From Gallionellaceae bacterium (GTDB taxonomy: Bacteria; Pseudomonadota; Gammaproteobacteria; Burkholderiales; Gallionellaceae): a stretch of 16,181 nucleotides of DNA. Made by a program: the position numbers and the translations under genes. The stretch spans positions 1 through 16,181 of the forward strand of contig JAUSKS010000153.1 in assembly GCA_030646595.1 (NCBI GenBank), in the 5' to 3' direction. Under the pieces are notes generated by a model. The model was not told where the DNA came from. It did no database searches and saw nothing but the letters and a program-made list of their open reading frames with translations. Within the stretch, counting starts at the first letter, position 1. Each line of letters starts with the position of its first letter. Below are positions 1 to 11,576 of this stretch, piece after piece.

Positions 1-583
1 CCCCCCCAGCTTGGCCGCTGCTAGTACCGGTAAAATACATCCCATTATTGCTGCCGGAAATTGTAGCTCCCGTGTTGTTGGTAATTCCTGTGGTTGTCCC
101 CCCACCTCCACCAAAATAAATGCCATCGGTGCCCCCTGAAATTGTGCCATCATTAGTAATACCAGCAATAATATTGCTGGAAGTAGCTTCGATACCATAA
201 GTTTGGCCGGAAATGGTGCTCCCCGTATTATTGAGTATGGTTCCCGATTGTGCGTCGCCCTGTAAATAGATGCCCGCAGCAACCGTATTTGAAATAATGC
301 CGGAATTGGTGATAGTACCGGCAATAATCGGGGCAGTGGCAGTACCAATAATGGTTATAGCACCGCTACCCACATTTACAGTAATCTCGCCTGGGGCTGT
401 ATTCACTGCCACGCTATCGCCTGTGAGTAAACCACACGCCGTAGCTTCACTCGAAGAAATAGTATTTATCCCACTATTGGAACATGAGCCTGTTCCCGCC
501 CATGTGTTAGCCACCATGGATAAACATGCAGCTGTAACCGCTTGCGCTAAAACCTTACGTTTGAATTTGTAGTGAGGGGGCAT
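1..583 (-). CDS. Autotransporter-type surface protein, N-terminal part (runs off left edge)
   Basis: An open minus-strand frame runs from ATG at 583-581 to the window edge, about 194 residues without a stop. The N-terminus is a signal peptide: basic MPPHYKFKRK, then a hydrophobic stretch ending near NTWA, with probable cleavage before GTGSC. Two cysteines about 19 residues apart (GSC and TAC) open the mature protein, as in the complete autotransporter at 5143-7716. After them come degenerate beta-helix repeats rich in Gly, Thr, Ser and Asn (ITNSGII, ILNNTGSTISG, ITNDGTISGG, ITNNTGATISG). This is the pattern of a type V secretion passenger folding as a beta-helix on the cell surface. The beta-barrel that would prove it lies outside the window, so a filamentous or adhesin-like protein without its own barrel is possible. 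No strong Shine-Dalgarno precedes the ATG. It is divergent from the sulfotransferase at 689 across 105 bases. Confidence 0.8.
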   Translation of the reverse strand, partial: MPPHYKFKRKVLAQAVTAACLSMVANTWAGTGSCSNSGINTISSSEATACGLLTGDSVAVNTAPGEITVNVGSGAITIIGTATAPIIAGTITNSGIISNTVAAGIYLQGDAQSGTILNNTGSTISGQTYGIEATSSNIIAGITNDGTISGGTDGIYFGGGGGTTTGITNNTGATISGSNNGMYFTGTSSGQAGG

Positions 584-659
584 CCGAATCTTTCTGATTG
601 CTGTACAGTTATTGGTAAAATTTACAAGTGATGGGGTTTTCCTCCATCATTGGCTTAAC

Positions 660-690
660 TGGACAGATTTTAGCATGACCCTCCTATAAT
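660..690 (+). promoter_or_regulatory. Candidate sigma-70 promoter overlapping a start codon
   Basis: TGGACA (660-665, five of six to TTGACA) and a perfect TATAAT (685-690) are separated by 19 bases, slightly long. If used, transcription would begin near 697, after the ATG at 689, which the -10 box overlaps. The sulfotransferase would then start at the in-frame ATG at 719. Alternatively the match is chance and a promoter further up is used. No Shine-Dalgarno precedes either ATG. Confidence 0.35.
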
Positions 691-2404
691 GAATGACAGC
701 AATATCCAAAGCTTCAATATGACCCTGCCTCAAGCCATGGCCGAAGCCGCACGCCTGGAAGCAGCCGGGCAAATGTCTGATGCAGAGGCGATGTATCGAA
801 AAATGCTGGCTGCCTCGCCTGATTTCCACCCGGCTTACCATGCCTTGGGTTTGCTTGCCTATCAATACGGAAAATTAGCGCTGGCGGCCGAGTTAACGGC
901 TAAAGCCATTGCGCTGAATAGCACAGTAGGCATGTATCAGCGCAATTTTGGAGAAATGTGTCGCCGCCTGGGGCGACTGGATGAAGCAATTGCAGCAGGC
1001 AAGCGCGCGGTGCAACTGACGCCTGAAGATGCAGATGCACACTATAACCTGGGCTTGGCGCTAGCTGAGCAGAAAGAATACAACGCAGCCATATCTTATT
1101 ATCGTTGCGCATTGGCACTCAAACCGGACTATGGTTTGGTATGGAACAATTTAGGTTCGGCACTGGAATTGATGGGTGATAAGCCAGCCGCTGAAAAGGC
1201 TTACGTCAAAGCGGTGGCGATTAATCCTAAGCATAGCGAAGCACAAAATAATCTGGGTGCAATTTACAGCGAGCAAGGCAAGCTGGATCAAGCTTGCGCC
1301 TGTTTTAATGCGGCTATCGCAGCGCGTCCCAGCTTTGCTGAAGCCCATTTCAATCTATCTACCTTAAAAACGTACACCACCAGTGACCCGCATTTCATCA
1401 TGCTGGAAACATTGTCTGAGGTAGCGGAATCATTGCCTATTGAGATGCGCATGCGGTTGAATTTTGCATTAGGAAAAGCACGCGAAGATGTGGGTGATTA
1501 TGATCGCTCCTTTGCTGCCTATGCGCAGGGTAACCGCTTGCATTTTTCTTTGCACCCGGTGGATGAAACTCAGGCAGATATTTACCGGGGCAAAATCATA
1601 TCCACTTTCACCGAGCAATTTTTTAAACAGCATGCACCTAGCACGACACCCAGTAATAAAGTGCCTGTATTTATTGTGGGCATGCCGCGTTCTGGCACCA
1701 CACTGATCGAACAGATTTTATCCAGCCATCCAGCTGTGTTCGGTGCGGGTGAATTGATGGATTTGAATGAGGTGATCACGCAAGCACCCCAGTCTGCAAG
1801 CGGACACCATTTCACCGAATGGTGTTTAAATGTATCGCCAGACGAACTGGCCATGCTGGGCCGGCAGTATGAGCAACGGGTATGGAAGCTGGCACCCGAC
1901 AAGGCCATCATTACCGATAAAATGCCCGGTAATTTTTCCTTGATCGGCATGATTCACCAGATGTTGCCCCATGCAAAAATTATCCATGCCATGCGCGACC
2001 CCATGGATTCCTGTTTTTCATGCTACTCGCGGCTATTTAACGACAGCATGGATTTTGCCTATGATTTGGGAACCCTGGGACGTTATTACGTGCGCTATAG
2101 ACAGATGATGCAACATTGGCATGCTGTGCTGCCTGCGGGCACCATTCTTGATGTGCATTATGAAGAAGTCGTTGCCGACATGCCGCAACAAACCCGGCGC
2201 ATGCTGGATTATATCGGCCTGCCCTGGGATGAAGCCTGTCTTTCCTTTCACCGTAACCAACGTCTGGTAAAAACGGCCAGCGTGGCGCAGGTGCGCAAAC
2301 CAATTTATACCACCTCAGTTGCACGCTGGGAAAAATTCCGCGCGCACCTTTCTCCATTACTGGAAATTGTCCAGAATTATCGCCACTCCCCGCTATACAA
2401 GTAA
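689..2404 (+). CDS. TPR-repeat sulfotransferase family protein (ST1)
   Basis: This 571-residue protein has two parts. Residues about 11-240 are tetratricopeptide repeats with the usual spacing (for example NLGLALAEQKEYNAAISYY and NLGAIYSEQGKLDQA), a protein-binding solenoid. Residues about 325-560 are a sulfotransferase domain of the PAPS-dependent type. The 5'-phosphosulfate loop is GMPRSGTTL (331-339), ITDKMPGNF follows (408-416), and KIIHAMRDPMDSC (430-442) is the likely 3'-phosphate-binding segment with Arg436 and Ser441. The expected reaction is transfer of sulfate from PAPS to a hydroxyl or amine; the acceptor is not visible in the sequence. There is no signal peptide, so it acts in the cytoplasm. 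It is clearly homologous through the C-terminal domain to the sulfotransferase at 8782-10917. It is divergent from the partial autotransporter at 1-583. The start is uncertain: ATG 689 overlaps a TATAAT box, and ATG 719 (residue 11) aligns well with the paralogue. Confidence 0.9.
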   Translation: MNDSNIQSFNMTLPQAMAEAARLEAAGQMSDAEAMYRKMLAASPDFHPAYHALGLLAYQYGKLALAAELTAKAIALNSTVGMYQRNFGEMCRRLGRLDEAIAAGKRAVQLTPEDADAHYNLGLALAEQKEYNAAISYYRCALALKPDYGLVWNNLGSALELMGDKPAAEKAYVKAVAINPKHSEAQNNLGAIYSEQGKLDQACACFNAAIAARPSFAEAHFNLSTLKTYTTSDPHFIMLETLSEVAESLPIEMRMRLNFALGKAREDVGDYDRSFAAYAQGNRLHFSLHPVDETQADIYRGKIISTFTEQFFKQHAPSTTPSNKVPVFIVGMPRSGTTLIEQILSSHPAVFGAGELMDLNEVITQAPQSASGHHFTEWCLNVSPDELAMLGRQYEQRVWKLAPDKAIITDKMPGNFSLIGMIHQMLPHAKIIHAMRDPMDSCFSCYSRLFNDSMDFAYDLGTLGRYYVRYRQMMQHWHAVLPAGTILDVHYEEVVADMPQQTRRMLDYIGLPWDEACLSFHRNQRLVKTASVAQVRKPIYTTSVARWEKFRAHLSPLLEIVQNYRHSPLYK

Positions 2405-2417
2405 TTGATCACAGGGC

Positions 2418-2443
2418 AATACGGGGGTATCCCCTACCGTATT
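2418..2443 (+). terminator. Stem-loop after the ST1 gene, possible weak terminator
   Basis: AATACGG (2418-2424) pairs with CCGTATT (2437-2443), and an inner GGG/CCC extends the stem around a TAT loop. It lies 14 bases after the sulfotransferase stop. Only a short T run follows, so intrinsic termination would be weak. It could instead protect the mRNA end or be a protein site. Confidence 0.4.
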
Positions 2444-2495
2444 TACAAGCATATTGCCGATTATCCAAAAGATTCGACCTTTCATCTTTTACGCA

Positions 2496-2524
2496 TTGAC
2501 TCTACCTGAGCCATTCAATATTCT
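2496..2524 (+). promoter_or_regulatory. Candidate sigma-70 promoter for the riboswitch operon
   Basis: TTGACT (2496-2501) and TATTCT (2519-2524) have an ideal 17-base spacer. They match consensus at five of six and four of six positions. The predicted start, near 2531, would fall inside the 5' end of the riboswitch and remove the 5' strand of its P1 stem. So either P1 is dispensable or transcription starts further upstream. Confidence 0.35.
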
Positions 2525-2603
2525 GCGCCCACTTGGCAAACTTATCGAAAGGTAAGGACGCAAAGTCACCGGCCTAAAGGAGACTATGGTAGCGGGACCG
2601 CGA
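2522..2603 (+). promoter_or_regulatory. Cyclic di-GMP-I riboswitch (GEMM-I aptamer)
   Basis: The conserved blocks of the GEMM-I aptamer appear in order. GGCAAAC (2535-2541) is followed by the P2 hairpin CTTATC-GAAA-GGTAAG with its GNRA tetraloop. Next come GGACGCAAAG, then CCGGCCTAAA with TATGG, which form a tetraloop receptor like the 11-nt CCUAAG/UAUGG motif, and finally GGTAGCGGGACC. P3 is capped by a short GAGA loop. A P1 stem can form between TGCG (2524-2527) and CGCG (2599-2602). In this family the RNA binds one c-di-GMP and controls the downstream genes, often for motility, adhesion, matrix or extracellular proteins. Here the next genes are a small lipoprotein and a large secreted protein on the same strand. 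Whether the switch is ON or OFF cannot be read with certainty. No copy was seen elsewhere in the window. Confidence 0.95.
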
Positions 2604-2622
2604 TACGGACGTTCGTCCGTAT
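2603..2622 (+). promoter_or_regulatory. Perfect hairpin abutting the riboswitch
   Basis: ATACGGAC and GTCCGTAT form an eight-pair stem with a GTTC loop, starting directly where P1 of the aptamer ends. No T tract follows, so it is not a normal intrinsic terminator. It may belong to the expression platform or stack on the aptamer. GCG/CGC pairing at 2592-2601 would compete with P1 and is a possible alternative fold. Confidence 0.5.
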
Positions 2623-2636
2623 GCATACTCTGCTTA

Positions 2637-2673
2637 CTCCTGCGCTATTTTTCAAATCTTGAAAAAAGGAGAG
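2637..2673 (+). promoter_or_regulatory. Shine-Dalgarno with possible sequestering hairpin (expression platform)
   Basis: The ribosome binding site AAGGAGAG (2666-2673) stands four bases before ATG 2678. TTTTTCAA (2648-2655) pairs with TTGAAAAA (2659-2666) around an ATC loop. Just outside it CTCC (2637-2640) can pair with GGAG (2668-2671) of the ribosome binding site. This suggests translational control by the riboswitch. The pairing is seen; the switching is inferred. Confidence 0.45.
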
Positions 2674-2677
2674 CAAC

Positions 2678-2824
2678 ATGAACAGATTAATCTTGGCTTT
2701 AGCAGTATGTGTACTCAGCGGCACAATGTCAGGTTGCGGCGGGGGCGGCGGAACAAGCTCCAGTACAACCTCCGTTACCGGTGTCGCTACGCCCGGTACC
2801 ATCTCCGTAGTCACTGCAAATTAA
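2678..2824 (+). CDS. Small Gly/Ser/Thr-rich lipoprotein, 48 residues
   Basis: The ORF runs from ATG 2678 to TAA 2822-2824, behind a strong AAGGAGAG Shine-Dalgarno. The N-terminus MNRLILALAVCVLSG is a lipoprotein signal. TMSGC at residues 16-20 is an acceptable lipobox with Cys20 as the acylated residue. The mature chain is only 29 residues: a run of five glycines, a Ser/Thr stretch, then a short tail ending VVTAN. No domain is recognisable. It is the first gene after the c-di-GMP-I riboswitch and ends 10 bases before the next ATG, so the two are surely cotranscribed. It may anchor or help export or assemble the 739-residue protein. It may also act partly as a translated leader, since its translation through the control region would couple to the next gene. 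Its good ribosome binding site and intact signal argue that it is a real gene. Confidence 0.75.
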   Translation: MNRLILALAVCVLSGTMSGCGGGGGTSSSTTSVTGVATPGTISVVTAN

Positions 2825-2834
2825 GGGGGCTGTC

Positions 2835-5054
2835 ATGAAAACAATTAAATTTCACCAAATTGCGATTCTGGCTTGCACACTGGTGCTCAGCGCAACTGCC
2901 TGGGCAACCCCTTCCAGCAGCTCTCCTTATGTTACCGACCCGCAGAATGAATATGTGCAAGATGCCACTTCGGAAGTAATTGGCAGTGTCAATATGGTGT
3001 TGTGCATTATGCATGCCATGAATGTGAATGACAGTGGCATGCTTAATGTTGGCCCATATATTGCCCTCATAGACATGAACAAGTGTGAGTCCCATGGTTC
3101 TGGTGGTTCTACAGGTGGCTCTTCTGGAGCCAGCTCTTCAACCAACTATATGACGGCGGTAATCGACGCTACTCGTGCCAGCAACACTGCTCCCATGGTT
3201 GGAAATGTCTGGATGTCCATGACTCAGATGGGCCAAGTAATGAACATCTTTGTCAAGGTAAGCGCCAGCCAGTCTCCAACAGATGTACCTCCTTATGGCG
3301 TGTTTCGCGTAGACTTCATAGGCAAGGATGCTCTCGGTACTGTACAGTTCAACGGCTTCATCGATTCTGCCGCAGGGACTCTGCAATATTACGAGACGGG
3401 TTCCAATTCACCTGATGTTGCCATGACCATGACCGCCAATAGCACGACTTCTGGCAGCGGTACCATGGCAGTTGGTGGCATGTCTTCCACCACCTTTAAT
3501 TTTAATTACAACTCCAGCTATTTTCGGCGCAGCGACGGCACCAACGATCAGTGTTTTGATCGTTTGAAAGCCAATGCCAACCGATCCGTCTGGCGTTTGG
3601 GAACTTACAATGCCGATGATGGTAGTCGGGTAGATCAGGCCAACCCAAGTTTTCCAACCACTGCCACTTATTCAGGTAGTTCTTATTATGGTTATGCCGG
3701 TTACTATGGGTTAAATTTCCAAGGACTGGATCTCAACCTTATAGCTGACGCCAGCCCGATTACTGGACTGGTTGTTACCGATCAGCGTCCTGGCAATAGC
3801 ACGACCTATAATTTATCCAAGGTCGGTGGCAAATTAACCAAATGGACAAAAAATGCAACGACGCTCTCTGCAATGGATGGCATCCCTTTCAGTTTCTACG
3901 GCGACCTGTCTGGTCTAACGGATAACGGGGCGGTCACAGGTTTTGGGAACTGGCAAATGCAGTGGAACAACACAGCGGCAAATTTTACCGTGATCGGTAC
4001 GCAAAGCTGTGGCCCCGGTGGTTGTGTGCTCACCGCACTCTCTCCAGTTGCAACAGTCAATGCCAATGCTTTTAATAGCCTCCCCATATCGGGTTGGTCT
4101 GATTCATTTGGCGGCAACATTGACATCCCCTCTACTGGGGCAGCGCATGGCGGCACTGATACCGTGAATTACTTCAGTCAATCTGCTGTTATTCCTGGAT
4201 CAGGCTCAGCACCCACCGCTTTGTATTGCCTGAGCAATTGCCCGGATGCAACCTCAGTTGCCGCAGCCAATGCCTACACCACTGGTACAGCGCCTACACC
4301 ATTCGGAGGCTCTACTGCCATGCAGTGGTTCTCGGCTCCCAACAGCGGCAGCACAGTCAGCTACACCTTTGATGGTAGTGGATTAAAAAATGGTAGTACA
4401 GCAATGATCATCAGCAACGCCGCTTTTTTCGATGCCAGCCCCATGTATCAATATGGGATCATGACTGGCCGCTTGTTCGATACCGCGTTTGCAACCTGCG
4501 GTAGCGGTGTGTGTGAACCAAGCTCGCCCTCGGTCTACTATACGTGGTCTACCGGTACTGGCCAGTGGAACCAATCCATGTGGCTGACCAAAACCACTGA
4601 TAGCAGTGTAGTCGCGTTTGATCCACCGCAAAACATCGCTTACACCGTGCCTAGCGGAACGGCTTATGGTAGCTGGGCAGGGAAAACCATACAGTTGCAG
4701 TTCAATGGTTTCGGCAATCTGTATGGCATTCCTGGTTATTGTGTAAGTCCGGTGGATAACAGCCCGGCAGACTGCTCTACAGCCAGCACTCGTTATGTAC
4801 CGATGTTCTCCATACCTGACGGTGCCACCATGACGTTAAATAGCACACCCTTAATCGTCAAGGCTCTGGATGCAGAAATACGGCTACAGGACCTGGGCCC
4901 AGGTGCTGCACAATGTTCCAGCATGTCATTTTCTCCCTTGACACCGCCCACTGGTGGCACACATGACATGAGCGATCCATCTGACGCCTTTTACCTCGGA
5001 GTTAAGCCTACTGTTACGGCCAGCCCCAAGGTCATTGACGGTATTGTTCAGTAA
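2835..5054 (+). CDS. Secreted cysteine-paired protein of unknown family, under c-di-GMP riboswitch
   Basis: This 739-residue protein starts at ATG 2835, after AAGGGGG at 2823-2829. It has a cleavable signal peptide (basic MKTIK, hydrophobic core, ending TAWA near residue 24). The mature protein has 12 cysteines at 57, 84, 240, 392, 397, 465, 469, 555, 560, 636, 647 and 694. The even number and local pairs (SCGPGGC, CLSNC, CGSGVC) suggest disulfides formed in the periplasm or outside. The N-terminal block holds VNMVLCIMHAMN and GPYIALIDMNKC, then a Gly/Ser linker (residues 88-103). The rest is rich in Ser, Thr, Gly and Asn, with tyrosine-rich patches (SSYYGYAGYYG, 282-292; SVYYTW). No transmembrane segment or beta-barrel terminus is seen. 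I do not recognise the family. An extracellular matrix, adhesin or surface-layer role is inferred from the riboswitch, the lipoprotein partner and the neighbouring autotransporters. Confidence 0.85.
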   Translation: MKTIKFHQIAILACTLVLSATAWATPSSSSPYVTDPQNEYVQDATSEVIGSVNMVLCIMHAMNVNDSGMLNVGPYIALIDMNKCESHGSGGSTGGSSGASSSTNYMTAVIDATRASNTAPMVGNVWMSMTQMGQVMNIFVKVSASQSPTDVPPYGVFRVDFIGKDALGTVQFNGFIDSAAGTLQYYETGSNSPDVAMTMTANSTTSGSGTMAVGGMSSTTFNFNYNSSYFRRSDGTNDQCFDRLKANANRSVWRLGTYNADDGSRVDQANPSFPTTATYSGSSYYGYAGYYGLNFQGLDLNLIADASPITGLVVTDQRPGNSTTYNLSKVGGKLTKWTKNATTLSAMDGIPFSFYGDLSGLTDNGAVTGFGNWQMQWNNTAANFTVIGTQSCGPGGCVLTALSPVATVNANAFNSLPISGWSDSFGGNIDIPSTGAAHGGTDTVNYFSQSAVIPGSGSAPTALYCLSNCPDATSVAAANAYTTGTAPTPFGGSTAMQWFSAPNSGSTVSYTFDGSGLKNGSTAMIISNAAFFDASPMYQYGIMTGRLFDTAFATCGSGVCEPSSPSVYYTWSTGTGQWNQSMWLTKTTDSSVVAFDPPQNIAYTVPSGTAYGSWAGKTIQLQFNGFGNLYGIPGYCVSPVDNSPADCSTASTRYVPMFSIPDGATMTLNSTPLIVKALDAEIRLQDLGPGAAQCSSMSFSPLTPPTGGTHDMSDPSDAFYLGVKPTVTASPKVIDGIVQ

Positions 5055-5071
5055 CCCGGTTCAAAGAGCAC

Positions 5072-5104
5072 AAAAAAAAGCGCGGCTAGTCCGCGCTTTT
5101 TTTA
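5072..5104. terminator. Bidirectional rho-independent terminator
   Basis: AGCGCGG (5079-5085) and CCGCGCT (5091-5097) form a GC-rich stem around a CTAGT loop. It is flanked by a run of A on the left and T on the right, so it works on both strands. It closes the riboswitch operon ending at 5054 and the convergent autotransporter gene ending at 5143. Confidence 0.93.
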
Positions 5105-5142
5105 TAACTGCTTGCAATAAAATATCTGCAATAACCCGGTAG

Positions 5143-7716
5143 TTAAAATAACTGCTTGAAATTAAGCGAGACCATATGATTGGTATAGCCTGATCTGCCT
5201 TCTATATCATAATTGGCCTGAAAGGCCCTGCTATTGGCTTGTTCCGCTTCATAACCCACACCAGCACGAATCAAAGTAGCTGACGGCTTGATACCTTGAG
5301 TCACAAAAGTGGACCCACCACCTACAAAAGTAGAAGTAATCGACGATTGCTTGGCTTTGGTGTCGTATCCTACATTCAAGTGGCCAGTTAATTTTGATTG
5401 GTCGTTCAGCTTATACCCCGCCTTACTTCCTGCTGAGATAATAAGCGCAGTCTGGGTCAGCTTGCCATTATTAAGGGCAAGTGGACTGCCGCTTTCGGTA
5501 TAACCATTCACTTTGACGCGCGCATACTCCAACCCCAAGGCAGGAGTAAGCGAGGTCTTGGAGTTGACCTGATGCAGACGCTCCAATTCTGCACTGAACA
5601 ACATATGGGCGCTGTTATAGCGGCCACTGGCCACGCCACCAAGAACATCCCGGGTACTGTTATTGCGGTTAGTTCCCAGGCCAAATTGCAAGTTCAAGGC
5701 GGTAACATCGTTGATACGATCCGAACCGTATACTGCGATTTGATAAGTTTTGATATCCACTTTTTGTGTATCGCTACTATTTTTTACCTTGCTATTGGCA
5801 TAAGCCAGCGCCGTGCCTATTCTCCATTGCTTGGAAACTTTCTGGTCTGCACCCACCATCAATCCATAGCTATTTGCCTTGTAGCCAGGCAGCCCATTAC
5901 GATCATTTTGTTTGGGGCGGGCGGCAAAAGGTTTGATCCAGCCGATGCGGTCTTTCTTTACCCCATCGCCAGAGGACAAACCATTAGCACTGCGCATTTG
6001 TTCATTCACTACATTCATCGAGCCACTGTGCAGCACGTCCAGAGTGGCAGCACCACTTGCCAGTTCCGGGGATAAGGAATGTAAAGCAGTTGCCACTTCG
6101 GCTGCACTGCCGAGCGAGGTCAGGCTGTCAAGTTCTGTCGTAATGGCATTGGGATTGGCTGCCAGCATACTATCCAGGGCAGTGGCAATACTCGACATCG
6201 CCGTTCCCGCTGCCGCAGTCTCAAAAGTAGTAAGTCCTGTACTCGTTGCAGTCAGGTCAATATGGCTAGCTCCATCATCCTGAGCACTAAATTGCCAGGC
6301 TAGACTGTTGTCCGTTACATGATAGCTACTGACTGGTACTAATGTTGTTGCGCTAACCACATTATCCAGCACGTCATTATTTGCCAGCGTATTAGTGGGC
6401 GCGACTTTCACAGATAATTTATTACTGGCTGAAAAATCCGCAGTACCACCGACCGTCAGCTTGTTGTAATTGGTGCTGCTGCCCGCTCCGATTTGCAATA
6501 TGCCATTTCCGCTCTGACTATAATTTCCGCCTATGGCGCTGGTACCGCCGGTGCTGTCAGCAATAGACAATAAACCGCTATTGCTCATGTTAATGGTGCC
6601 GCCCAAATTAAGCATGCCACTCAAGGACCCGCTATTGATGACGTTGCCCGTCCCGCTCCCGGCTGAAATCGAATAGGCGCTGGTGTCTGTTCCACTTGCA
6701 ACAATGGTTCCGCTATTGGTGATGGTCGAACCCGCATCCACAGAGGTGGCTCTTATGCCGACTGCAGAACCCGACCCGCCGGTTGTTATCGCGCTTGCGG
6801 TGATATGGCCGCTGTTGTTAATGCTGGACGTCACCATATTACTGGCATCAATGCCATAGGCAAAAGCATTGTTTAATCCCGTGGCGGTAGCACTCACCGT
6901 GCCACTGTTGGTAATGCTTGCTCCGCTGCTCATATTGCCCAGATGGATGCCTGAAGCATAAGCACCTCCAGTAGCATTATTAGCCGTAGCGCTGATGGTA
7001 CCGCTATTAACCAAAGAAGTAGACAGGTTGCCTTGCACATAAATACCCAGTGCAGAAGCACTGCCAGCCGAATGTGCATCAGCCGCAATAGTGCCACTAT
7101 TATTTAATGAGCCGGACAGATCACCCCCAACGTAGACACCGTAGGCGCGTGCCATAGTAGTGGCCATGGTGGATACACCATTGATGACACCGCTGATGGT
7201 ACCGGTGTTGGTCAAGCCCCCACTCAAAGCACCAGAAACCGTCACGCCTGCACCATAGAAAGCTGACGTTACGGCTTCGATGCGCCCGTGATTGGTCAGG
7301 CTACCATCCAATGCACCCGCATACAGCAAAGCGGTATTGGAAACAGCAGAGATTATGCCACCAGACTGATTGATAATAGTTGTCCCTGTCGCCGCTGCAT
7401 CGACCCTGATCGCATTGACTCCACCGTTAACAGCAATCGTTCCACTGTTATTGATGCTAACGCCAGTGGCCAAATTATCTACCGAAATTGCAGGAGCAGT
7501 AGCAGTCGATAAATTGATTGCGCCGCTCGCAGAGATCGTAGTGGAGCCCGTAGCCGACATGCTGCACGGAGCTGTTAAAACGCTGGTGATATTGGCATCA
7601 CACGCGGCGAATACCGTAGGTGCGCAAAGCGCAGCAATGGCCATCGTGACGGCACTGTTTATAACGGTATAGCTCCAGCGTGGTAAACGATGGTTGGTTT
7701 TATGTACATTTTTCAT
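5143..7716 (-). CDS. Autotransporter with beta-helix passenger and C-terminal beta-barrel
   Basis: This 857-residue type V secretion protein is complete. Residues 1-37 are a long signal peptide ending PTVFA, with ACDAN starting the mature protein. Cys39 and Cys51 may form a disulfide. Residues about 80-400 are passenger repeats of the form NSGTISA, with little sequence complexity, expected to coil as a beta-helix outside the cell. Residues about 485-585 are an Ala/Leu-rich helical linker (SIATALDSMLAANP, SLSPELASGAATLD). Residues about 590-857 are the outer-membrane autotransporter barrel, with alternating aromatic and polar strands and the terminal Phe (LNFKQLF) recognised by BAM. The start is supported by AAAGGAA just before ATG 7716. 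The passenger is small and shows no protease or lipase motif, so adhesion or aggregation is the likeliest role, which is inference. It follows, on the same strand, the cysC-sulfotransferase-hydrolase genes, with a 238-base gap that probably holds its own promoter. Expression ends at the terminator at 5072-5104. Confidence 0.93.
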   Translation of the reverse strand: MKNVHKTNHRLPRWSYTVINSAVTMAIAALCAPTVFAACDANITSVLTAPCSMSATGSTTISASGAINLSTATAPAISVDNLATGVSINNSGTIAVNGGVNAIRVDAAATGTTIINQSGGIISAVSNTALLYAGALDGSLTNHGRIEAVTSAFYGAGVTVSGALSGGLTNTGTISGVINGVSTMATTMARAYGVYVGGDLSGSLNNSGTIAADAHSAGSASALGIYVQGNLSTSLVNSGTISATANNATGGAYASGIHLGNMSSGASITNSGTVSATATGLNNAFAYGIDASNMVTSSINNSGHITASAITTGGSGSAVGIRATSVDAGSTITNSGTIVASGTDTSAYSISAGSGTGNVINSGSLSGMLNLGGTINMSNSGLLSIADSTGGTSAIGGNYSQSGNGILQIGAGSSTNYNKLTVGGTADFSASNKLSVKVAPTNTLANNDVLDNVVSATTLVPVSSYHVTDNSLAWQFSAQDDGASHIDLTATSTGLTTFETAAAGTAMSSIATALDSMLAANPNAITTELDSLTSLGSAAEVATALHSLSPELASGAATLDVLHSGSMNVVNEQMRSANGLSSGDGVKKDRIGWIKPFAARPKQNDRNGLPGYKANSYGLMVGADQKVSKQWRIGTALAYANSKVKNSSDTQKVDIKTYQIAVYGSDRINDVTALNLQFGLGTNRNNSTRDVLGGVASGRYNSAHMLFSAELERLHQVNSKTSLTPALGLEYARVKVNGYTESGSPLALNNGKLTQTALIISAGSKAGYKLNDQSKLTGHLNVGYDTKAKQSSITSTFVGGGSTFVTQGIKPSATLIRAGVGYEAEQANSRAFQANYDIEGRSGYTNHMVSLNFKQLF
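6622..7455 (-). repeat. Degenerate NSGTI-type coding repeats in the passenger
   Basis: Within the autotransporter passenger (residues about 88-365) the unit x-N-[NST]-G-[TH]-I-x-A recurs about ten times at 20-35 residue spacing: INNSGTIAV, LTNHGRIEA, LTNTGTISG, LNNSGTIAA, LVNSGTISA, ITNSGTVSA, INNSGHITA, ITNSGTIVA, VINSGSLSG. The units share protein rather than DNA identity, so these are old structural rungs. The same unit occurs in the partial protein at 1-583. Confidence 0.8.
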
Positions 7717-7954
7717 TTGGATATTCCTTTCGGTCGTGTTTAGAAGAGTAAATCACCAAACTTGCGGTTGATTGATTGATGCACATGACCAACGATCAAC
7801 TTAAGCTGAGCCATACTTTCTCACCATAGAGGAGGAAATTCTGTACGCTATCGAACACATAAATAGAAAAATATTGCAGGAGATAAAGCAGCCTCGTGCG
7901 ACCTTTTTGTACCGAGGAGAGGAGATAAAACAGTGGGCTACAGGTATATGGATT

Positions 7955-8785
7955 TCACCAGCGAGACAGATCTGGCCACTGTTCTACCCAGCAGCAGACA
8001 TGGTCAAAGCCTTCGATGACCCGCAGTTGCGCCCGGTTATTTTTGGGGAAGCGGGCCAAGTACGATGCAACAATTTCGCGCGTGACGATGTCATCCTCTG
8101 CGCCAACAAAATGTATCTGCGGTATAGCAGCCAATGCCTGCCATCGATCCGCCGGGTTAAGCGAGCCAGTCAAAGGCGTCACATGATGATGGTGCGTCCA
8201 CGCTGCATGATCGAGATTCCCTGCTACCGTCACCAGACGTACTACATCTGCACGTTGTGCGGCCACCAGCGCAGCAATTGCAGCGCCGCCGGAATAACCA
8301 ACCAGCACAATTTTATTGGCCTGGAAACGGCGTTTTAATTGCTCGATTGCCTGATCCGTCGCAGCTACCACCTCAGCAGCAAACCGCCGGTCGGTCCACC
8401 ATGTTGCTGCGCAGTTGTGCTGGTCATTACCGGTGACGTATTGGCAGGGCCGTGCCAGATAAGCGGCAGCCCCTTGCGGGTGACGCAATGCCAGTTGCAA
8501 AGCCAAGGGACGCAATGGAGTGGGATCCAAAGAAACTTGTGACTGGCTGAGCCAAGCCAAACCATCGCCTTCAATATAGATGGTCAACAACTCATCCTGA
8601 TGCACATTCTGTGGAATGAAACCGGCCAGCACAAAGGGGGTGGTCGTCATCAGACGTATACTTTGCCAGCCTGCGGCGTGAGCCATATTCTCAGCAGATT
8701 GACGGCGTAGTTCGGGTGAGGCAATACTGGCACAACCAACAAGAGTGAGCAGGAACAAACCCACCAGTCCACGGTTTGTTCTCAC
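7955..8785 (-). CDS. Alpha/beta hydrolase-fold lipoprotein
   Basis: This 276-residue protein starts with GTG at 8785-8783, overlapping the TGA of the upstream sulfotransferase gene (GTGA), so translation is probably coupled. The N-terminus RTNRGLVGLFLLTLVGC is a lipoprotein signal with Cys18 as the lipid site, which places the enzyme in the periplasm or at the outer membrane. A nucleophile elbow GYSGG gives Ser165. VGAEDDIV (Asp231 or 232) and GFDHVCCW (His262) complete a plausible Ser-Asp-His triad. Four further cysteines, at 114, 125, 264 and 265, may form disulfides. The fold predicts an esterase, lipase, thioesterase or similar; the substrate is not shown. Its place in a cysC-sulfotransferase operon suggests it trims or acts on the same surface product, which is inference. 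A 169-codon alternative on the opposite strand (7874-8338) is an antisense shadow. Confidence 0.85.
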   Translation of the reverse strand: MRTNRGLVGLFLLTLVGCASIASPELRRQSAENMAHAAGWQSIRLMTTTPFVLAGFIPQNVHQDELLTIYIEGDGLAWLSQSQVSLDPTPLRPLALQLALRHPQGAAAYLARPCQYVTGNDQHNCAATWWTDRRFAAEVVAATDQAIEQLKRRFQANKIVLVGYSGGAAIAALVAAQRADVVRLVTVAGNLDHAAWTHHHHVTPLTGSLNPADRWQALAAIPQIHFVGAEDDIVTREIVASYLARFPKNNRAQLRVIEGFDHVCCWVEQWPDLSRW

Positions 8786-10917
8786 CTTACCAAGTCACCT
8801 AATGCCTCCAGCAAAGGGCCCAGATGTGCTTCATATTTACGCCAACGCTCCAGTGAGGAATGATAGATCGGTTGCCGTACCTGAGTAACGCTGGCAGTGC
8901 GGATGTTGCGCTCGGTTTTGTGGGATTCCAGACAAGCATCATGCCACTCCAGGCCGCAATATTGGAGCAATGCACGAGCCTGGTTCTCGTTATCGGTGAC
9001 CAGATTTTCATATTGCACTTCATAAAAAGAACCAGCGGGTAACACACTGCGCCAGTGCTCCATCAGTTGTGCATAGTTGCGGTAGTAATCGCCAATTTCG
9101 CGCAAGTCATAGCTCTGGTTCTGGCTTTTATTGAACAAGCGGGTGAAACATGACAGGCAAGTATCCACCGGGTTGCGCTGGACATGAATAATTTTGGCAT
9201 GTGGCAACATCAGGTGGATGAGGCCAACGCAATTAAAATTAGCTGGCATTTTGTCGGTGATATATTGCGCACCCGGCTGACGTGCCTGCAAACCCGACAC
9301 ATATTGTTCGCCCAGTGCAGTCAACTCCGTCGGCGTGATGTTGGCAAGCGACCAGGGATAACCTGCGCTCGCTTCCGCCCGGGGATGGTTGGCCAGTTGC
9401 AACAGGTCATGCAGTTCGCCCGCCCCATATACCTGTGGATGGCTGGCGATAATCTGTTCGGTCAGGGTGGTGCCGGAACGCGGCATGCCCAATATAAAGA
9501 TGGGTAAGGTGGAAGGGCAAGCACTGCTGCGCAGACTGTCTATTTTTTGACGGCTGAAAAATTCGCGGATGTTGTGGCACATCTGCTCATTCTCCGCCGC
9601 GTTGTAGTGAATACGCTTGCGTTTCAGGCGACAGCCTTGCAGATAATGGGCAAAGGCCAGATCATATTGCCCGGTATCGTCATAACATTTTCCCAAAGCA
9701 AAGTGCAGGGGCAATGCTTTGGTTTCCATTTGCGGGTCTAACTGCTCTGCGGCAGCAATCAGCGCAGCCATATTGCCATCATCCGGTTTAGCCTTTTTAA
9801 CTTGCGCCAATGACAAACGTGCGCCCAGATTATCGGTATCCAGATGCAACACATGACGAAAGCTGGCTTCTGCTTCATCCAGCTTACCCTGTTCCATAAA
9901 CAAATGACCTTGGCCCAAATGTGCGCCTAACAGATCAGGCTCTAGCTGTAAGGCTTGCGCATACGCTTGATGCGCTTTGTCTGCAAATCCGGCTTCGCCA
10001 TAAATTCCGCCCAGCAAGCTGTGTACCCCGGCTTTGCTGGCATCCAATGCCAGTGCCTGGTGAGCCAGCGCCTCAGCTTCCTGTAGCTTTGATTGTTCCT
10101 GATAAAGCCGAGCCAAGCCCTGATAGGCTTCCACATAATCCGGTTTGAGCGCGAGCGCACGCTGAAAACCCGCAACAGCCTGATCAAATTTCTCCAGTGA
10201 TAAAAAAGCAGTAGCGATATTGCAATGCGCCTCGGCATAACCCGGACTGACCTGAATTGCAGTAAGCAGGAATTTGATCGCTTCTTCCGGTTGCTCAGTC
10301 TCGGTAAGTACTGCCCCCAGATTATTGAGCGACTCTGGATGTTGTGGTGCCAGTGCCAGCACTTGCCGATAAAAATCGATCGCACCATGCTTGTCTTTAC
10401 GATCGCGCCGGATGCTGCCCATATTATTCAGCGCCGTCACCAATTTTGGATTCAAGGCCAAGGCACGCTGCTGGCAAGCTTCTGCCTGGTCCAACTCCTT
10501 GCGATCATAATAAGCGATGCCCAAATTACTGTGTGCAATAGCCGAATGCGGATCAAGTGCCACTGCCTGCTCGCCATGGGCTACCGCTTCATCCCATCGT
10601 TTCAACAAGCGGCACATCTCTCCCAGATTGGAATGAAATTGTCCTGCTGTGGGTAAATTTATGATGGCCTGACGAATAAGCTGTATAGCTTGTTCGGTAT
10701 TATTCATTTGATGGGCAATAACCCCTGACAGATGCAATGCATGCGCATGATTGGGGCGTAGTTGCAAAATCTGCCGCAGCAGTATTTCTGCATGTTGCAA
10801 TTGACCTGCTGCATAATGACGCTCGGCCTGCTGCCAAGCCTGCTCAATGGTGAATTGCGGGGGAGCGGCAAGCGGCCCTGGCGTAGCAGGATGTAATGAA
10901 GAAGGTTTATGAACCAT
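8782..10917 (-). CDS. TPR-repeat sulfotransferase family protein (ST2)
   Basis: This protein has 711 residues from ATG 10917; a TTG at 10923 would add two. Numbering here is from the TTG. Residues about 25-375 hold about ten tetratricopeptide repeats (ALNNMGSIRRDRKDKHGAI and SLNNLGAVLTETEQPEEAI are examples). Residues about 473-705 are a sulfotransferase domain. It has the 5'-phosphosulfate loop GMPRSGTTL (479-487), ITDKMPANF (555-563) and the likely 3'-phosphate segment KIIHVQRNPVDTC (577-589). It should transfer sulfate from PAPS to an unidentified acceptor, with the TPR solenoid choosing the partner. It has no signal peptide. It is paralogous to the protein at 689-2404 over the whole catalytic domain, with more TPR units. 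The donor-making gene cysC lies 26 bases upstream on the same strand, and its stop overlaps the start of the exported hydrolase. This operon order is the best hint that it really uses PAPS. No clear Shine-Dalgarno is seen. Confidence 0.92.
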   Translation of the reverse strand: MVHKPSSLHPATPGPLAAPPQFTIEQAWQQAERHYAAGQLQHAEILLRQILQLRPNHAHALHLSGVIAHQMNNTEQAIQLIRQAIINLPTAGQFHSNLGEMCRLLKRWDEAVAHGEQAVALDPHSAIAHSNLGIAYYDRKELDQAEACQQRALALNPKLVTALNNMGSIRRDRKDKHGAIDFYRQVLALAPQHPESLNNLGAVLTETEQPEEAIKFLLTAIQVSPGYAEAHCNIATAFLSLEKFDQAVAGFQRALALKPDYVEAYQGLARLYQEQSKLQEAEALAHQALALDASKAGVHSLLGGIYGEAGFADKAHQAYAQALQLEPDLLGAHLGQGHLFMEQGKLDEAEASFRHVLHLDTDNLGARLSLAQVKKAKPDDGNMAALIAAAEQLDPQMETKALPLHFALGKCYDDTGQYDLAFAHYLQGCRLKRKRIHYNAAENEQMCHNIREFFSRQKIDSLRSSACPSTLPIFILGMPRSGTTLTEQIIASHPQVYGAGELHDLLQLANHPRAEASAGYPWSLANITPTELTALGEQYVSGLQARQPGAQYITDKMPANFNCVGLIHLMLPHAKIIHVQRNPVDTCLSCFTRLFNKSQNQSYDLREIGDYYRNYAQLMEHWRSVLPAGSFYEVQYENLVTDNENQARALLQYCGLEWHDACLESHKTERNIRTASVTQVRQPIYHSSLERWRKYEAHLGPLLEALGDLVR

Positions 10918-10943
10918 GAGCAATCAAACCCATGCACTATTAA

Positions 10944-11576
10944 CTAAGTCAGGGGCGCCAATACACTGCGCTGGACATGCCATTTTATAATTTCCTGCAC
11001 GGCATCCGGCAAGGGAGTAGCACTCGTGTCAATCACCAAATCGGGGTGCAATGGCTCCTGATAAGGCGAGGAGATGCCGGTAAATTCAGCAATCAAACCT
11101 TGCCGCGCTTTTTTATACAATCCCTTCACGTCGCGCTGTTCACATACTTCCAGGGGGCAACGACAATAAATTTCGCAAAAATTTTCGCTGCCGATTAAAT
11201 GCTTGGCGCGCTCTCTATCTTCCACAAACGGGGCAATGAACGCGCAAATCACGATTACCCCGGCTTCGACAAACAAATTGGAAACTTCACTGATGCGGCG
11301 GATATTTTCTATCCTGTCCTGGGCCGAGAATCCCAAATCCGCACATAAGCCATGCCGCACATTATCGCCGTCCAGTACAAAAGTCCGGCATCCCATTTGA
11401 TGCAGTGATTCTTCCAGTGCATGTCCCAAAGTAGATTTGCCCGAACCGGATAACCCGGTCAGCCAGATGACTGCGCCACGATGTCCGTTTTGTAATTCAC
11501 GCCGCGCCCGGGTAACGGTCGCAGCATGGCGGACAATATTGGCTGGCAAGGGAGGGGTGCTTATAGTCATGTGCAT
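10944..11576 (-). CDS. cysC: Adenylylsulfate (APS) kinase
   Basis: CysC phosphorylates adenylylsulfate with ATP to give PAPS, the donor for sulfotransferases and the substrate of PAPS reductase. The 210-residue protein has the expected single-domain length. It shows the P-loop GLSGSGKST (41-49), the APS-binding DGDNVRHGL (69-77), FSAQDRIENIRRISEV, then CAFIAPF and the lid segment KGLYKKARQG. The C-terminus keeps YQEPLHPDLVIDT. It starts at ATG 11576, with a second ATG two codons later, 24 bases after the tilS stop. No sulfate adenylyltransferase or PAPS reductase gene is nearby. Next to a PAPS-dependent sulfotransferase, this copy most likely serves sulfation rather than cysteine synthesis, which is inference. 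The cell probably makes APS from genes elsewhere. Confidence 0.95.
   Translation of the reverse strand: MHMTISTPPLPANIVRHAATVTRARRELQNGHRGAVIWLTGLSGSGKSTLGHALEESLHQMGCRTFVLDGDNVRHGLCADLGFSAQDRIENIRRISEVSNLFVEAGVIVICAFIAPFVEDRERAKHLIGSENFCEIYCRCPLEVCEQRDVKGLYKKARQGLIAEFTGISSPYQEPLHPDLVIDTSATPLPDAVQEIIKWHVQRSVLAPLT

What the first reader, a model, noticed from the sequence alone, without database searches (positions are those of the whole stretch)
1..10917. Two autotransporter/TPR-sulfotransferase pairs flank a c-di-GMP-controlled secretion operon
A partial autotransporter is divergent from ST1 (689-2404), and a complete one lies downstream of ST2 (8782-10917). ST1 and ST2 share closely similar catalytic domains, and both autotransporters carry NSGTI-type repeats and a pair of cysteines after the signal peptide. 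The repeated pairing suggests that sulfotransferases recognise autotransporter passengers or shared surface polymers. This may be a new surface-sulfation system; it could also be simple clustering of surface genes.
Basis: inference. Interest (0 to 1): 0.75.

Follow-up and report, generated by a model that had tools for sequence, protein, structure and literature searches.

The report
Autotransporter-linked sulfotransferase gene cassette
Two enzymes that look built to attach sulfate groups to proteins sit, here and in many distantly related bacteria, next to the gene for a large exported surface protein, which suggests that these bacteria sulfate their surface proteins before export.

Summary
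The pairing is real and far above chance, but no c-di-GMP gene or secretion operon is in the window. ST1 and ST2 are TPR proteins with a tyrosylprotein-sulfotransferase-like catalytic domain. ST2 lies in a tight run with an APS kinase (makes the sulfate donor PAPS) and a lipoprotein alpha/beta-hydrolase (ABH), followed by autotransporter AT2; ST1 diverges from AT1. ST2 orthologues recur in Gallionellaceae, Desulfobulbaceae, Ghiorsea, Cycloclasticus, Moraxellaceae, Alphaproteobacteria and Paludibacterium. In 36 genomes outside Gallionellaceae-like records, 23 ST2 loci carry a PF03797 autotransporter (0.45 expected); of 13 genomes with a single autotransporter, 11 have it at ST2. ABH, APS kinase and ST1 recur, and ST1-ST2 are fused in eight loci. 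In one Gallionellaceae clade the partner is a two-partner-secretion adhesin instead (10 of 12 rows). Best reading: cytosolic sulfation of type V passengers before export, working like HMW1C-type glycosylation. The substrate is unproven, and Tyr versus Ser/Thr is open. Eight searches of an open-licence paper library showed no such system.

The parts
2..583 (-). AT1: N-terminal fragment of a putative autotransporter, cut by the contig end
   Evidence: open frame of 194 aa running off the contig; weak repeat similarity to AT2 (E 0.001); no Pfam match
689..2404 (+). ST1: TPR-sulfotransferase, divergent from AT1 with 105 bp between the start codons
   Evidence: PF13469 1.2e-48 plus TPR families; ST1 clade of the tree
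5143..7716 (-). AT2: complete type Va autotransporter, 857 aa, NSGTI repeat passenger
   Evidence: PF03797 6.4e-47, residues 593-837; ten NSGTI-like repeats
5073..5103 (.). 13-pair hairpin with A/T runs just past the AT2 end and the 739-aa gene end; terminator-like
   Evidence: pattern scan only
7955..8785 (-). ABH: predicted lipoprotein alpha/beta-hydrolase, start overlaps the ST2 stop
   Evidence: weak alpha/beta-hydrolase Pfam matches; Cys18 of the lipobox, Ser165, Asp231 and His262 invariant in 17 of 17 aligned; model pLDDT 90.4 with generic esterase/peptidase-like matches
8782..10923 (-). ST2: TPR-sulfotransferase, the cassette's most conserved member in the scan
   Evidence: PF13469 1.6e-49 plus TPR families; orthologues
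10944..11576 (-). APS kinase (CysC), makes PAPS; 20 bp upstream of ST2
   Evidence: PF01583 1.4e-67; TIGR00455 257.8 bits, cut-off 138.7; the only PF01583 match in this assembly

Best explanation
ST1, ST2, the APS kinase and ABH form, with the neighbouring autotransporter, a conserved cassette that sulfates type V exoproteins. Shown by sequence: the cassette recurs in distantly related Proteobacteria-type genomes and in Desulfobulbaceae; both enzymes join an OGT-like TPR superhelix to a TPST-like, PAPS-dependent catalytic domain; a PAPS-making kinase is in the run; the neighbouring exoprotein can be an autotransporter (type Va) or a two-partner-secretion adhesin (type Vb). Inferred: the APS kinase raises PAPS; ST1 and ST2 act in the cytosol, their TPR grooves holding the unfolded Ser/Thr-rich passenger while the catalytic domain moves sulfate onto hydroxyls (Tyr if strictly TPST-like, otherwise Ser/Thr); the passenger then leaves through Sec and its barrel or TpsB; ABH acts on or near it in the periplasm; the surface protein gains negative charge.
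For: Enrichment in the family and outside it. Recurring partners: of 45 loci outside Gallionellaceae-like records, 31 with an autotransporter-like gene within 10 kb, and within 6 kb 20 with ABH, 17 with ST1, 12 with APS kinase. ST1-ST2 fusions in 8 loci (5 checked by Pfam). Partner swap to TPS in 10 of 12 rows of one ST2 clade, TpsA and TpsB checked by Pfam. Cassette beta-domains fall in several lineages. Profile of catalytic domains finds protein-tyrosine sulfotransferases first; Arg482, Glu503, Lys558, Ser591, Ser678 of ST2 invariant in nine orthologues and their counterparts in ST1 too. ST2 model's best matches are OGT and SPINDLY, TPR enzymes that act on polypeptides. CysD in the assembly. 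All five genomes with an ST1-clade enzyme have PF03797, held over cut-off by 26 of 150.
Against: No sulfated passenger has been seen. No Tyr or acidic-residue excess in cassette passengers against 23 controls. Some ST2 loci with good flanks lack an autotransporter (for example L126, L141, L154, L167), 4 of 36 genomes have no PF03797 at all (two of these, L111 and L122, do have passenger-like fragments), and in Gallionellaceae-like records only 12 of 35 have a type V neighbour. G026, with two ST1-like copies, has no PF03797. A single-sequence PDB search put a polyketide-synthase sulfotransferase domain (3.1e-8) ahead of TPST2 (2.7e-7). No sulfotransferase is among the 50 fold matches shown, and the model is weak around Ser678.
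Confidence: 0.58

Rival explanations
1. The enzymes sulfate a surface polysaccharide, or a glycan carried by the passenger, and the autotransporter is displayed in the same matrix.
For: Glycosyltransferases and a further sulfotransferase lie between the two enzymes in G027 (L049), and an alginate-lyase-like gene precedes ST2 in G048 (L047:13327-15441). Many bacterial sulfotransferases act on glycans (recall).
Against: Of the recurrent neighbour clusters printed for the 80 loci none was recognised by eye as a glycosyltransferase, though they were not scanned with profiles; the recurrent partners are the exoprotein, ABH, ST1 and APS kinase. Heparan-sulfate enzymes score far below TPSTs in the profile search (0.002 against 4e-18). 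The TPR domain suits a polypeptide.
Confidence: 0.2
2. ST1 and ST2 modify some other protein or small molecule; the autotransporter is co-regulated and co-transferred but is not the substrate.
For: ST2-like enzymes without a type V neighbour exist, and one Gallionellaceae group sits near a Cyc2-like outer-membrane protein instead.
Against: The exoprotein neighbour is retained across AT lineages and across the switch to TPS, which is hard to explain if it were a passive companion.
Confidence: 0.18
3. Chance or loose clustering of surface genes.
For: Genomes are related, contigs are short and uneven, and the expected values assume uniform placement and independent rows.
Against: About 20-fold and 50-fold excess, the same gene set in distant bacteria, and fusions.
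Confidence: 0.03

Closest known systems
RaxST-RaxX of Xanthomonas (PMC6637879, passages seen)
   Same: PAPS-dependent TPST-like enzyme encoded beside the secreted polypeptide it modifies and its exporter
   Different: RaxX is a 60-residue precursor exported by a predicted type I system; RaxST homologues there are of RaxST length, whereas ST1/ST2 have a long TPR domain, come as a pair, lie with an APS kinase and ABH, and neighbour type V exoproteins
HMW1C and the BAHT/Aah/TibC heptosyltransferases (recalled, no call)
   Same: Cytosolic enzyme encoded beside a type Vb or type Va adhesin and modifying it before export
   Different: They add sugars; ST1 and ST2 are sulfotransferases
Human TPST1/TPST2
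   Same: Catalytic domain: best profile matches in the PDB with conserved Arg, Glu, Lys and Ser positions
   Different: TPSTs are Golgi enzymes without TPR repeats (recall)
O-GlcNAc transferase and SPINDLY
   Same: TPR superhelix before a C-terminal transferase; best fold matches of the ST2 model
   Different: Glycosyltransferase catalytic domain; likeness is in the TPR part

Membership tests
TPST-like PAPS-dependent sulfotransferase (PF13469) | Family profile over its curated cut-off | tested here: met
   ST1 166.6 bits, ST2 169.5 bits, cut-off 27
TPST-like PAPS-dependent sulfotransferase (PF13469) | Basic residue and Ser in the two PAPS motifs and a Glu/His base between them (essentials as given in PMC6637879) | tested here: met
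   Arg482, Ser591, Glu503 of ST2 invariant; counterparts Arg28, Ser137, Glu49 invariant across ST1 and ST2 rows
TPST-like PAPS-dependent sulfotransferase (PF13469) | Sulfates tyrosine of a polypeptide | not testable with these tools
   needs mass spectrometry or an assay
Rax system | Type I exporter (RaxA/RaxB) and RaxX beside the enzyme | tested here: not met
   no such Pfam or NCBIfam match in the window proteins scanned
HMW1C / BAHT adhesin glycosylation | The neighbouring modifying enzyme is a glycosyltransferase | tested here: not met
   ST1 and ST2 match sulfotransferase, not glycosyltransferase, families; the likeness is functional only
Type Va autotransporter (AT2) | C-terminal PF03797 barrel | tested here: met
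   160.9 bits, cut-off 26
Type Va autotransporter (AT1) | C-terminal PF03797 barrel | tested here: inconclusive
   gene cut by the contig end; a barrel-bearing fragment on contig C286 fits in orientation but no overlap was found
APS kinase | PF01583 / TIGR00455 over cut-off | tested here: met

The most novel reading that the evidence does not exclude
A widespread, laterally moving system of Gram-negative bacteria in which a pair (or fusion) of TPR-guided TPST-like enzymes sulfates type Va and type Vb surface proteins before export: a protein-sulfation counterpart of adhesin glycosylation, with its own PAPS supply and a periplasmic serine hydrolase.
Probability: 0.5. Interest if true: 0.9.

Novelty: new variant of a known kind. 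Interest (0 to 1): 0.76.

Why it matters
The one bacterial protein-sulfation system met in these searches is RaxST-RaxX. A cassette shared by iron- and sulfur-cycling bacteria, Cycloclasticus and a cultured isolate (Paludibacterium purpuratum) would give many enzyme-substrate pairs to test, would show a new way to put strong negative charge on surface proteins, and would give TPR-sulfotransferases of unknown function a likely job.

Tried and rejected
c-di-GMP control: no supporting domain. The exported 739-aa protein (2835-5054) as a cassette part: at least 415 homologues, named ones from Gallionella, Nitrosomonadales, Sideroxyarcus and Burkholderiales, but not the best match of any frame in the 80 ST2 loci, so left out. 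A Tyr/acid target motif: no excess of Tyr or D+E. NSGTI and G[IVL]Y[VIL] repeats are richer in 24 cassette passengers than in 23 controls (p 1.8e-5 and 2.1e-4), but the latter difference is not kept against the 7 NSGTI-rich controls (p 0.24), so no target site is claimed; an earlier control set was wrongly selected and replaced. ATP-sulfurylase PF01747 is not in the assembly; CysD is. AT1 continuing on contig C286: orientation fits and both contig ends run outward into poly-G, but no overlap was found; undecided.

Literature: searches of the open-licence PMC library; listings and openings of abstracts were seen, and of PMC6637879 passages. 19 papers hold both 'sulfotransferase' and 'autotransporter' and 3 hold 'sulfotransferase' and 'two-partner secretion'; no title or abstract opening joins the two. 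Subscription journals and preprints were not searched.

Rows dropped: searches used 36 of the 45 loci outside Gallionellaceae-like records. Left out were L114, L116, L117, L118, L135, L149, L156, L163, L187, all with about 1.1 kb or less on one side; eight showed no autotransporter, L163 did. Counting all 45, 24 are Pfam-confirmed; with L183, seen only through PF03797, 25. The split into 35 and 45 records is mine, by title and contig length. L155 was left out of passenger statistics (odd start) and L219 out of the controls (L178's own autotransporter). L127 and L175 fell out of the tree for lack of the motif searched.
Full report
What is in the window. The window is one whole contig (G000:C46) of a 2.31 Mb, 84% complete draft genome in 333 contigs. 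Left to right: AT1 fragment 2-583(-); ST1 689-2404(+); exported 739-aa protein 2835-5054(+); AT2 5143-7716(-); ABH 7955-8785(-); ST2 8782-10923(-); APS kinase 10944-11576(-); TilS; AccA; a MscS channel with a cNMP domain; an apgM-type gene end. The AT1 and ST1 start codons are 105 bp apart. The APS kinase ends 20 bp before ST2, and the ABH start overlaps the ST2 stop, so these look co-transcribed; AT2 follows on the same strand after 238 bp (coordinates), and a 13-pair hairpin lies just past its end.

Gene positions, the likeness of ST1 and ST2 (49% over the catalytic part), the repeats and the cysteine pair hold. No c-di-GMP gene or secretion operon was found.

Enrichment inside the family. 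In 150 genomes PF13469 (E<=1e-15), PF03797 and PF05860 were located; 36 autotransporter and 127 TPS matches over cut-off were used. Of 64 TPR-type sulfotransferases (my rule: at least 129 bits, and frame of at least 440 aa or a contig-cut frame under 300 aa) in 45 genomes, 15 in 13 genomes lie within 10 kb of a type V gene, 0.75 expected; within 5 kb 12, 0.37 expected. The window's own two are among them. Of 57 other sulfotransferases 4 do, 0.49 expected. Expected values assume uniform placement; related genomes make the Poisson values of that call too small. The five genomes of the ST1 clade (G000, G027, G045, G053, G119) all have PF03797 over cut-off, which 26 of 150 genomes have; G026, with two copies on the next branch, has none.

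Beyond the family. A scan of named genomes with nine Gallionellaceae ST2 orthologues (alignment A1) found 238 loci and kept the best 80. In 45 of these, outside Gallionellaceae-like records, 31 have an autotransporter-like gene within 10 kb (18 within 1 kb); within 6 kb 20 have ABH, 17 ST1, 12 APS kinase; among loci with at least 2 kb on each side 27 of 33 have a type V gene. Pfam confirmed the barrel in 12 of 13 such proteins scanned; the thirteenth, of L157, matches PF03797 in the genome search. PF03797 over 36 of these 45 genomes gave 91 autotransporters over cut-off (my tally); 23 ST2 loci carry one (24 with L183), 0.45 expected; 13 genomes have exactly one, and in 11 it is at ST2; 4 of 36 have none. 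In the other 35 records 12 have a type V gene: 2 AT, 10 TPS.

Order and fusion. AT divergent from ST1, then ST2 and ABH (L134, L137), or AT, fused ST1-ST2, ABH and APS kinase on one strand (L147, L153) are clear examples; in the window the set looks split into AT1/ST1 and APS kinase-ST2-ABH-AT2. ST1 and ST2 form one frame with two catalytic P-loops in L146, L147, L148, L153, L158, L164, L165 and L168 (five of these by Pfam), a sign that the two work together.

Partner swap and transfer. In a quick ST2 tree (17 of 77 inner branches well supported, midpoint root) one supported clade of 12 rows has a TPS adhesin next door in 10. The TPS label needs 3 changes against 9.6 for shuffled labels, AT 18 against 26.1, 0 of 500 shuffles as low in either case. 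TpsA carries ESPR, GLUG, MBG and YDG domains, TpsB ShlB and POTRA. Beta-domains of cassette autotransporters fall in several lineages mixed with some controls. None of 18 other same-genus genomes has an AT2 match or a full-length ST2 match. The window's ST2 has its highest identity (78%, 263 columns) with L155, a Desulfobacterales record, and of 16 other ABHs aligned its ABH is closest to the same locus (68%); this fits transfer as a unit.

Enzymes. The profile of nine catalytic domains finds protein-tyrosine sulfotransferases first (4e-18, 1e-16, 9e-14), then polyketide-synthase and CurM sulfotransferase domains, then SULT and heparan enzymes at 5e-4 and weaker. With ST2 alone a polyketide-synthase domain came first and TPST2 next. 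Arg482, Glu503, Lys558, Ser591 and Ser678 are invariant in nine orthologues and line up with TPST residues; which TPST residue does what, beyond the three essentials named in PMC6637879, is recalled. The ST2 model (pLDDT 82.8, nine sequences, under 50 at 669-689) is a long TPR superhelix whose best matches are OGT and SPINDLY; no sulfotransferase is in the 50 rows shown. ABH has an invariant lipobox Cys, Ser165, Asp231 and His262 in 17 of 17 sequences and a confident, generic esterase/peptidase-like fold; its job is unknown. PAPS: CysD is present; the window's APS kinase is the only one found in the assembly, whereas 13 of the 18 other same-genus genomes have theirs in a frame of 622-638 aa, the length of a CysNC fusion.

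Mechanism. Shown: cassette, enzyme type, donor-making gene, export route. Inferred: that the passenger is the substrate, that modification is cytosolic (no signal peptide is apparent by eye on ST1 or ST2), which residues, and what ABH does. Passengers hold about 1-4% Lys+Arg, 3-15% Asp+Glu and 16-29% Ser+Thr, so sulfate could change the charge of many of them strongly.

Verdict. A conserved cassette, undescribed in the papers searched; the substrate claim is plausible but unproven.

Noticed in passing
L063:7780-9042 and loci of 10 other family genomes: Another group of TPR-sulfotransferases lies within 8 kb of an outer-membrane-like protein with a FARQTGMACxxCH motif, in 11 genomes. It resembles the iron oxidase Cyc2 by recall; sources name its kin hypothetical proteins.
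   Followed up: partly
G102:C50, G107:C43, G116:C95, G121:C27: Sulfotransferases without a long TPR part (276-291 aa frames) also lie within 10 kb of TPS adhesins on the same strand.
   Followed up: no
L086:8083-13203 (G119:C77): ST1 and ST2 are fused in one frame of about 1,710 aa with ABH next to it.
   Followed up: yes
window 1-7 and the right end of L065 (G000:C286): Both contig ends run outward into poly-G within autotransporter genes; this may be a sequencing artefact at a hard stretch, or a real homopolymer. The C286 autotransporter has a broken frame near its barrel.
   Followed up: partly
window 2835-5054: Exported 739-aa protein without Pfam match, with at least 415 homologues, several named as from Gallionella or Nitrosomonadales; function unknown.
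   Followed up: partly
L049:12409-17178 (G027): A Sulfotransfer_4 protein and two GT2 glycosyltransferases lie between the ST1-like and ST2 genes.
   Followed up: no
L052:6433-8469 and nine kin loci: In the TPS-linked group an AMP-dependent CoA-ligase-like protein lies near ST2 in 10 genomes, with a small VOC-like protein (named by eye) in 5.
   Followed up: no
   Followed up: no
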